From Acinetobacter sp. ASP199 (GTDB lineage Bacteria; Pseudomonadota; Gammaproteobacteria; Pseudomonadales; Moraxellaceae): a DNA stretch of 64,000 nucleotides. The stretch is from contig NZ_CP062182.1 in NCBI RefSeq assembly GCF_022700675.1, positions 2,852,001-2,916,000 on the forward strand. Direction: 5' to 3'. Position 1 is the stretch's first letter. The number at the start of each line of letters is the position of its first letter. Below are positions 3,945 through 6,164 of this stretch, piece by piece. The translations under genes were made by a program, and so were the position numbers. A model generated the notes under the pieces. That model saw nothing but the letters and a program-made list of their open reading frames with translations. It was not told the DNA's origin and did no database searches.

Positions 3945-6164
3945 TTATCTCTGAATCAACAGTTTATTTGCTTTTTGATATCCGCGTGGTAACAGCTGTC
4001 CTTTCGAACCGCGTTTGCCGATGTACTTTTGCAGATCATCCCCTTTTAATTTTATTTGCTGTTGTCCTGCAAGCACTTGAATTATTTCATCTAAACTCAA
4101 GGCTGTCATGGACAAAATTTGATCTTTTTCTTCAAGTTGTATCAATTTATTACCTTTGCCTTTATTCAACACAGGTAATTCAGCCAAATCAACAATTAAT
4201 AGACGACCTGCAGAACTGAGCAATGCCAGATGAGTTTTGTCCTCAAGTGGCAGCAGATTCATGGCCTGCGCACCTTCTGGCACGGTCAGGAATGCTTTAC
4301 CAGCTTTGGCATTGGTATCCAGCTGCTTGGCCTGAGTTTTAAAACCATAACCTTTGCTGCTGATTGCCAGGATTTCTGCCTCATCTTCGGCAACCAGAAC
4401 CTGTTTAAAGCCGACGCCACTTGCAGGAGAAAGTTTTGAACTCAGCGGTTCACCTAAGCCACGCGCAGAAGGCAGACTGTTGATGGCCAAGGCATAACTG
4501 CGCCCCGTATCATCCAGTACATAAACACGCTGATTAGACTTGCCTTGTGCATGACTCAAATACTGATCCCCGGCACGGAAGTGCAGGTTTTCGGCATCGA
4601 CCTCATGGCCTTTGGCACAACGGATCCAGCCTGCCTCAGACAATACCACTGTCACAGGATCAGCTGGCAGCATTTCAGTTTCATCAATTGCCGCGGCTTC
4701 AGCACGTTCTACAATTGGGGAACGGCGGTCATCACCAAATTTCTTGGCATCATCTTTGAGTTCATTGATGATCAAATTCTTTAAAGATTCTGGATTGGCC
4801 AGTTGCTCACGGATTTCAGCTGCCTTGGCTTCTAACTCTTCCTGCTCACGGCGCATTTCCATTTCTTCAAGCTTGGCCAAATGACGCAACTTGAGTTCTA
4901 AAATGGCTTCTGCCTGAATTTCATCAATACCGAATCGTTGCATCAGCACCGGTTTGGGCTGATCTTCTTCACGGATGATCTGAATCACTTCATCAATATT
5001 CAGGTAGGCAATGATCAAGCCACCCAAAATATGTAAGCGTTTCTCGATTTTATTCAGATGGAATTGCAGACGACGGGTCACGGTGGTCTTTCGGATTTCA
5101 ATCCATTCCAGCAAAATACGACGGATCGATTTCACCTGCGGGCGACCATCCGCACCAATCATATTCATATTGACGCGATAGCTAGATTCAAGATCGGTGG
5201 TTGCGAACAAATGACTCATCACCGATTCAGCATCAATACGGTTTGAACGTAACACAATGACCAGACGGGTCGGATTTTCATGATCGGATTCATCACGCAC
5301 ATCCGTCACTAAAGGCAGTTTCTTCGCCTGCATCTGGTCTGCAATCTGGGTGATGATCTTGGAACCAGACACCTGATATGGCAGTTCAGTAATAATGATT
5401 TCGTTTTTATCTACAGTATAAATGGCACGCATGCGGTAGCTACCACGACCGGTGGTTTGCATTTTCAGCAATTCCGCTGGTGGGGTAATGATTTCCGCTT
5501 TGGTCGGTAAGTCCGGTCCCGGAATATATTCCGCCACTTTGCTATCGGTCAGGTTCGGATTACGAATCAGCGCAATGGTCCCTTTGACCACTTCACGCAG
5601 ATTATGCGGTGGAATATCAGTTGCCATCCCTACAGCAATACCCGTAGTACCATTCAACAAAATATTCGGTACACGTGCTGGCAGATTGACTGGCTCTTTC
5701 ATCGAACCGTCAAAGTTGTCCTGCCAGTCACAAGTCCCTTGACCTAACTCGGAAAGCAGTAACTCACTGTACTGTGACAGTTTGGCTTCGGTATATCGCA
5801 TCGCCGCAAAGGACTTCGGATCATCCGGTGAACCCCAGTTCCCCTGACCTTCAATAAACGGGTAGCGATAGCTGAACGGTTGTGCCATCAGCACCATGGC
5901 CTCATAACACGCTAAGTCACCATGTGGATGGTATTTACCCAGTACATCACCCACAGTACGTGCAGATTTTTTTGGCTTGCTGGTCCATTTGAGCCCCAGC
6001 TCACTCATGGCATAAACAATACGGCGCTGTACCGGTTTCAGACCGTCACTGATATGTGGCAGTGCACGATCCATAATGACGTACATGGCGTAGTTGAGGT
6101 AGGCCTGTTCGGTAAATTCTGCTACGGAACGGTTTTCTGTCGCATGATGCGCAAGGCTTGTCAT
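3945..6164 (-). CDS. parC: DNA topoisomerase IV subunit A (Ser84 replaced by Leu)
   Basis: Type IIA topoisomerase A subunit that decatenates daughter chromosomes together with ParE. 739 aa, full length. It has the winged-helix DNA-breakage domain with catalytic Tyr124 in AAMRYTEAK, the GyrA/ParC coiled coil, and a C-terminal beta-pinwheel region from about residue 500. The quinolone-resistance segment reads KYHPHGDLACYEA. Residue 84 is Leu, codon TTA at 5913-5915, where the family has Ser (TCA or similar); Glu88 is retained. Ser84Leu (E. coli Ser80) is an established fluoroquinolone-resistance change in Acinetobacter. The parE and gyrA genes are not in the window. A 9-bp inverted repeat sits in the 5' leader. 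Confidence 0.97.
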   Translation of the reverse strand: MTSLAHHATENRSVAEFTEQAYLNYAMYVIMDRALPHISDGLKPVQRRIVYAMSELGLKWTSKPKKSARTVGDVLGKYHPHGDLACYEAMVLMAQPFSYRYPFIEGQGNWGSPDDPKSFAAMRYTEAKLSQYSELLLSELGQGTCDWQDNFDGSMKEPVNLPARVPNILLNGTTGIAVGMATDIPPHNLREVVKGTIALIRNPNLTDSKVAEYIPGPDLPTKAEIITPPAELLKMQTTGRGSYRMRAIYTVDKNEIIITELPYQVSGSKIITQIADQMQAKKLPLVTDVRDESDHENPTRLVIVLRSNRIDAESVMSHLFATTDLESSYRVNMNMIGADGRPQVKSIRRILLEWIEIRKTTVTRRLQFHLNKIEKRLHILGGLIIAYLNIDEVIQIIREEDQPKPVLMQRFGIDEIQAEAILELKLRHLAKLEEMEMRREQEELEAKAAEIREQLANPESLKNLIINELKDDAKKFGDDRRSPIVERAEAAAIDETEMLPADPVTVVLSEAGWIRCAKGHEVDAENLHFRAGDQYLSHAQGKSNQRVYVLDDTGRSYALAINSLPSARGLGEPLSSKLSPASGVGFKQVLVAEDEAEILAISSKGYGFKTQAKQLDTNAKAGKAFLTVPEGAQAMNLLPLEDKTHLALLSSAGRLLIVDLAELPVLNKGKGNKLIQLEEKDQILSMTALSLDEIIQVLAGQQQIKLKGDDLQKYIGKRGSKGQLLPRGYQKANKLLIQR

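What the first reader, a model, noticed from the sequence alone, without database searches (positions are those of the whole stretch)
5913..5915. ParC Ser84Leu (E. coli Ser80 position): fluoroquinolone-resistance substitution
The minus-strand codon is TTA in the motif KYHPHGD-L-ACYEA. I count it as residue 84 from the ATG at 6164. Acinetobacter and enterobacterial ParC normally have Ser here, and a TCA-to-TTA transition explains Leu. Glu88 and catalytic Tyr124 are unchanged. Resistance usually also needs a GyrA change (Ser81), which lies outside this window.
Basis: partly seen in the sequence, partly recalled or inferred. Interest (0 to 1): 0.85.

Follow-up and report, generated by a model that had tools for sequence, protein, structure and literature searches.

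The report
Fluoroquinolone-resistance mutation in Acinetobacter ParC
This Acinetobacter carries the textbook pair of drug-target changes, one in ParC and one in GyrA, that make fluoroquinolone antibiotics bind poorly; it is a well-known kind of resistance, found here in a species that could not be named and whose chromosome also carries two acquired resistance genes.

Summary
The minus-strand ORF 3945-6164 is parC, codon 84 (5913-5915) is TTA = Leu, and Glu88 and Tyr124 are intact. The nearest relatives have Ser at both sites, one C-to-T step away. GyrB and ParE drug-region blocks match those of the two nearest relatives, and no pentapeptide-repeat (Qnr-type) match was found. Of 141 Acinetobacter genomes in which both codons were read, 17 have a ParC-84 substitution and all 17 also have a GyrA-81 substitution. 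That fits the two-step order seen in A. baumannii evolved on ciprofloxacin (PMC8262867, passages). The contig also carries sul2 and tet(X). The mutation is of a known kind. The modest extra is that the residue reached at GyrA-81 tends to follow the starting serine codon. No MIC could be measured, and variation within the species could not be tested.

The parts
3945..6164 (-). parC, DNA topoisomerase IV subunit A, 739 aa
   Evidence: ORF; TIGR01062 parC_Gneg 1027 bits over cut-off 628.9; PDB 2xkj best match
5913..5915 (-). codon 84, TTA = Leu (Ser in most Acinetobacter read; E. coli position 80)
   Evidence: relatives; the E. coli number is recalled
5901..5903 (-). codon 88, Glu, unchanged (the acidic residue of the drug-anchoring pair)
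   Evidence: translation, coordinates counted from the ATG; role from established knowledge
5793..5795 (-). codon 124, Tyr, unchanged (DNA-cleaving tyrosine)
   Evidence: translation, coordinates counted from the ATG; role from established knowledge; conserved in the alignment to 2xkj

Best explanation
Leu84 is an acquired second-step fluoroquinolone-resistance substitution in topoisomerase IV. It sits on top of a first-step GyrA Ser81Phe in the same genome. Shown: both substitutions, the Ser state of the nearest relatives, single C-to-T steps, an intact reading frame and intact Glu88 and Tyr124. Inferred from established work: the drug's Mg2+-water bridge is anchored by this serine and the nearby acidic residue, so losing the serine weakens drug binding or positioning while the enzyme still works. 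With gyrase also altered, the cell should be clearly ciprofloxacin-resistant. The lineage has probably been under antibiotic selection, since its chromosome also carries sul2 and tet(X).
For: Leu84 and Phe81 in one 3,048,990-base contig. Nearest relatives: ParC TCA in G084, G118, G162 and G156; GyrA TCT in G084, G118 and G170. Genus: of 141 genomes read at both sites, 17 have both substituted, 12 GyrA only, 0 ParC only, 112 neither (Fisher p 1.5e-14, relatedness ignored). On a tree the ParC state changes at least 14 times; over 8 independent pairs on supported branches GyrA goes the same way in 6.7 on average, does not differ in 1.3, and goes the other way in none (median p 0.0156). A. baumannii ATCC 17978 evolved on ciprofloxacin gained GyrA Ser81Leu first, then ParC Ser84Leu or Glu88Lys, and both of these variants reached 128 times the starting resistance (PMC8262867, passages). 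An A. baumannii record with Leu at the same place carries an RGI call 'fluoroquinolone resistant parC'. Bridge anchored by serine and acidic residue in E. coli gyrase (PMC9917921, abstract). Sul2 and Tet(X) over their curated cut-offs.
Against: No MIC. GyrA Ser81Phe in Acinetobacter found no precedent in my searches: of the 16 papers listed none held both Acinetobacter and Ser81Phe, and ('S81F') listed one paper, by its title on Streptococcus pneumoniae. No second genome of the window's own species was available. The 5' part of parC (about nt 100-800) is more diverged from G084 than most of the rest, so local recombination is not excluded. Outside the drug-region blocks the window's genome has residues unlike all 10 relatives in GyrB (190) and ParE (170, 247, 559), of unknown effect. 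Efflux regulators were not examined.
Confidence: 0.93

Rival explanations
1. Leu84 is resistance-conferring but arrived by recombination: a stretch of parC was imported from another resistant Acinetobacter rather than mutated in place.
For: parC nt 101-800 is only 87-93% identical to G084 in 100-base bins, whereas nt 801-1500 is 93-100%. gyrA of this genome is clearly patchy, with a later part closer to G063 in seven bins.
Against: In parC nt 101-800 the window, G084 and G118 are about equally far apart and the window has no excess of private changes; two later bins (1501, 1801) also fall to 89-90%. Three Leu-bearing relatives compared around the codon (G134, G051, G049) differ from the window at many silent sites. 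The gyrA drug region itself is G084-like.
Confidence: 0.12
2. Leu84 and Phe81 are natural, fixed states of this species with no link to drug exposure.
For: No second genome of the species was available to show Ser. A natural non-Ser GyrA state does seem to exist elsewhere in the genus: the 7 Thr81 genomes of 149 read all also have Asp at 85.
Against: The nearest relatives have Ser at both sites. Ser84 and Leu84 forms occur side by side in near-identical proteins P0002 and P0003. All 17 ParC-substituted genomes of 141 are also GyrA-substituted. Other acquired resistance genes are on the contig.
Confidence: 0.04
3. The codon is a sequencing or assembly error.
For: A single base decides the call.
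Against: The genome is one contig rated 99.98% complete. A second textbook change is present in GyrA. The protein row with this exact sequence stands for 2 contigs, although these may be copies of one assembly.
Confidence: 0.02

Closest known systems
A. baumannii ParC Ser84Leu (also written Ser80Leu) with GyrA Ser81Leu (Ser83Leu)
   Same: Same ParC residue and the same substitution; same pairing with the GyrA serine.
   Different: Here GyrA-81 is Phe, not Leu. The host's nearest relatives carry TCT at this codon, and TCT cannot reach Leu in one base change.
tet(X)-positive Acinetobacter of animals and their surroundings
   Same: An ISCR-type transposase ORF, sul2 and tet(X) are present here; 135 of 193 tet(X)-carrying isolates were ciprofloxacin-resistant in PMC7722449 (passages).
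   Different: The terms gyrA and parC occur 0 times in the main text of that paper, so it offers no target-site genotype to compare. The origin of the window's strain is unknown.

Membership tests
Fluoroquinolone target-site (QRDR) resistance mutation, ParC Ser84 class | Substitution of the drug-anchoring serine of ParC (84 in Acinetobacter) | tested here: met
   TTA = Leu at 5913-5915; Ser in 2xkj/2xkk at the aligned place
Fluoroquinolone target-site (QRDR) resistance mutation, ParC Ser84 class | Enzyme otherwise intact, with Glu88 and the catalytic Tyr kept | tested here: met
   Open 739-aa frame, Glu88, Tyr124; TIGR01062 over cut-off
Fluoroquinolone target-site (QRDR) resistance mutation, ParC Ser84 class | Companion substitution in GyrA (residue 81) | tested here: met
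   GyrA Phe81, TTT
Fluoroquinolone target-site (QRDR) resistance mutation, ParC Ser84 class | Derived state: Ser in close relatives | tested here: met
   G084, G118, G162, G156 have TCA at ParC 84; G084, G118, G170 have TCT at GyrA 81
Fluoroquinolone target-site (QRDR) resistance mutation, ParC Ser84 class | Ser in susceptible members of the same species | not testable with these tools
   No second genome of the species was available; the nearest protein rows P0002 (Ser) and P0003 (Leu) probably belong to a close relative
Fluoroquinolone target-site (QRDR) resistance mutation, ParC Ser84 class | Raised fluoroquinolone MIC | not testable with these tools
   Needs the strain
Plasmid-type quinolone resistance (Qnr pentapeptide proteins), considered as an added cause | A pentapeptide-repeat protein in the genome | tested here: not met
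   PF00805: no match at E 0.001 in the 1 genome searched; the control rang in 9 of 14 genomes
GyrB/ParE target mutations, considered as an added cause | Change in the 100-residue block around EGDSAGGS | tested here: not met
   Both blocks identical to those of G084 and G118, and no residue in them is unique to the window's genome among 11 compared

The most novel reading that the evidence does not exclude
Across the genus Acinetobacter, the residue by which GyrA-81 escapes fluoroquinolones is set by which serine codon the species happens to carry: TCA gives Leu, TCT or TCC gives Phe or Tyr, AGT or AGC gives Ile. Some species would then evolve alleles that catalogues built on A. baumannii Ser81Leu do not list, and the path to the double mutant would be GyrA first in every lineage.
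Probability: 0.6. Interest if true: 0.35.

Novelty: already known. Interest (0 to 1): 0.22.

Why it matters
It makes a firm, checkable resistance prediction from a genome alone. It also shows the classic double-target genotype in an Acinetobacter whose chromosome carries sul2 and tet(X), so three drug classes are probably affected at once. The genus survey suggests that GyrA-81 alleles differ by species for a simple reason, the starting codon, which matters for tools that look only for the A. baumannii alleles (this last point is inference, not tested).

Tried and rejected
Plasmid collection with window 1-20000: 4 records matched, three of them A. baumannii records whose parC is labelled resistant and one Neorhizobium record elsewhere; none helped to name the species (the tool may leave out records very near the window's genome). 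Papers on GyrA S81F in Acinetobacter and on serine-codon limits gave no direct precedent in the listings seen; one search was a narrow term set and proves nothing about the wider literature. Papers joining tet(X)-type terms with gyrA and parC in Acinetobacter gave no clear case by title in the rows listed; PMC9784582 was looked at by passages only and did not give an Acinetobacter genotype. PMC8635130 was looked at by passages only: gyrA and parC occur 0 times in it. GyrB/ParE blocks and Qnr as added causes were tested and not supported. Efflux regulators (adeN, adeRS, adeL) and aac(6')-Ib-cr were not examined.

The codon rule is weaker for ParC than for GyrA: the nearest Ser relative is one step away in 6 of 10 (distance up to 0.1) and 8 of 17 (all) for ParC, against 13 of 13 and 17 of 23 for GyrA. 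The GyrA counts leave out the 6 Thr81 genomes of the 141.

Full report
What is there. The minus-strand ORF 3945..6164 encodes 739 residues and is ParC by NCBIfam (TIGR01062, 1027 bits against 628.9). Codon 84, at 5913-5915, reads TTA = Leu in KYHPHGD-L-ACYEA; residue 88 is Glu and residue 124 is Tyr. The solved A. baumannii topoisomerase IV (2xkj/2xkk) aligns without gaps over residues 1-502 and has Ser at the same place.

The companion site. The window lies at 2852001-2916000 of a single 3,048,990-base contig. gyrA lies elsewhere in it (2129843-2132815, minus strand), and its residue 81 is Phe, codon TTT. GyrB and ParE blocks of 100 residues around EGDSAGGS are identical to those of the nearest relatives G084 and G118; 10 relatives were compared. 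Outside the blocks, GyrB residue 190 and ParE residues 170, 247 and 559 differ from all 10, with unknown effect. The Pfam pentapeptide family (Qnr-type proteins) has no match at E 0.001 in the genome. Efflux regulators were not examined.

Ancestry of the change. The nearest genomes by ParC, G084 (99%) and G118 (98%), have TCA at ParC 84 and TCT at GyrA 81. Both window codons are one C-to-T change away. Including 1.5-kb flanks, the parC region is 94.2% identical to G084 and 90.6% to G118, and the collection holds one genome per species, so these are other species. In the protein database (7999 candidates scored, the best 120 listed) the next rows are P0002 (Ser84, 85 member sequences, 10 residues different) and P0003 (Leu84, 9 residues different). 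They share 8 of these differences from the window, so Ser and Leu probably both occur in one close relative. Among the 120 listed proteins residue 84 is Ser in 85, Leu in 27, Tyr in 3, Phe in 3 and Trp in 2; that list is redundant and leans towards much-sequenced species.

Genus survey. ParC codon 84 was read in 146 and GyrA codon 81 in 149 of the 175 Acinetobacter genomes searched (loci, tallied). ParC: Ser 129, Leu 14, Tyr 3. GyrA: Ser 118, Phe 12, Thr 7, Tyr 5, Ile 4, Leu 3. Both were read in 141: 17 have both substituted, 12 GyrA alone, 0 ParC alone, 112 neither (Fisher p 1.5e-14, which ignores relatedness). Of the 12 with GyrA alone, 6 are the Thr81 form, which comes with Asp at 85 in all 7 genomes that have it and looks like a natural clade state. 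On a tree from 528 flanking bases the ParC state changes at least 14 times and the GyrA state at least 21 times. Over 8 independent pairs on supported branches, GyrA goes the same way in 6.7 on average, never the other way, and does not differ in 1.3 (median p 0.0156). This fits the known order, gyrase first and topoisomerase IV second. The 34 genomes left out were not read at both sites.

Codon limits. For GyrA-81, leaving out Thr, the substituted codon is one base from the codon of the nearest Ser relative in 13 of 13 genomes that have such a relative within tree distance 0.1 (shuffle mean 5.0, 0 of 1000 shuffles reach it), and in 17 of 23 overall (shuffle mean 9.1, 0 of 1000). The six exceptions have their nearest Ser relative further away than 0.1. 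For ParC-84 the counts are 6 of 10 (shuffle mean 2.9, p 0.049) and 8 of 17 (p 0.054). So Phe rather than Leu at GyrA-81 in this genome is what a TCT starting codon allows. The rule is well supported for GyrA and only weakly for ParC.

Other resistance genes on the same contig. A search for dihydropteroate synthases found three matches: one within a long frame (1228 aa), one ordinary FolP-like ORF (284 aa), and one ORF that NCBIfam calls Sul2 (614.8 bits, cut-off 575). Next to it is a 395-aa ORF that matches an ISCR clade Ia transposase below its cut-off (519.5 of 925); plasmid records label it an ISVsa3-family transposase. About 3.3 kb beyond sul2 lies an ORF called Tet(X) (769.5 bits, cut-off 750). 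The 1622-base stretch holding it is 99.9% identical to plasmid records that name it tet(X3). IS4-family transposase ORFs lie on both sides, which the plasmid records label ISAba1. In PMC7722449 (passages), 135 of 193 tet(X)-carrying Acinetobacter isolates were ciprofloxacin-resistant.

How it most likely works. In quinolone complexes a Mg2+ ion with its waters links the drug to a conserved serine and an acidic residue. PMC9917921 (abstract) reports evidence for this in E. coli gyrase, where it seems to position the drug, and refers to it in E. coli topoisomerase IV. Leu cannot take that role (established chemistry), while catalysis, which uses the tyrosine, is kept. In A. baumannii ATCC 17978 under ciprofloxacin, GyrA Ser81Leu came first with about an 8-fold MIC rise, and variants adding ParC Ser84Leu or Glu88Lys reached 128-fold (PMC8262867, passages). 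A review gives the same roles for GyrA S83L and ParC S80L in clinical isolates (PMC11323783, section 16). By analogy this strain should be clearly resistant. That last step is inferred.

Verdict. It is an ordinary, well-known mechanism in an Acinetobacter species that could not be named from the collections held.

Noticed in passing
G000:C1 about 2021200-2028800 (loci L339, L340), outside the window: Stretch with sul2, an ISCR-type transposase ORF and a tet(X) gene (99.9% DNA identity to records naming tet(X3)), with IS4-family (ISAba1-like) transposase ORFs on both sides and, beyond, two integrase-like ORFs that match NF007246 below its cut-off.
   Followed up: partly
gyrA of the window's genome, G000:C1:2129843-2132815 (L113): Mosaic look: in 100-base bins the first 1.1 kb is 90-100% identical to G084 and the rest 71-92%, with G063 the best match (91-96%) in seven of the later bins; suggests recombination with another species after the first 1.1 kb.
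   Followed up: partly
GyrA loci L243, L250, L256, L258, L259, L263, L264 (ParC loci of four of these genomes: L081, L097, L099, L103): Seven Acinetobacter genomes (named ones include A. soli and A. guerrae) have Thr81 and Asp85 in GyrA, which recalls the Thr83 and Asp87 of Pseudomonas aeruginosa; probably a natural state that could alter baseline quinolone susceptibility.
   Followed up: no
the 120 listed ParC proteins: Residue 84 is Phe in 3 and Trp in 2 of the listed proteins; neither state was met in the 146 species genomes.
   Followed up: no
window 25031-30479, minus strand: rRNA operon (16S, two tRNAs, 23S, 5S) by Rfam.
   Followed up: no
window 58731-61592, minus strand: VgrG-type type VI secretion tip protein, 953 aa.
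   Followed up: no
window 14714-16105, plus strand: MdtD-type MFS transporter (NF007799, over its cut-off), named as a multidrug transporter; no link to quinolones tested.
   Followed up: no
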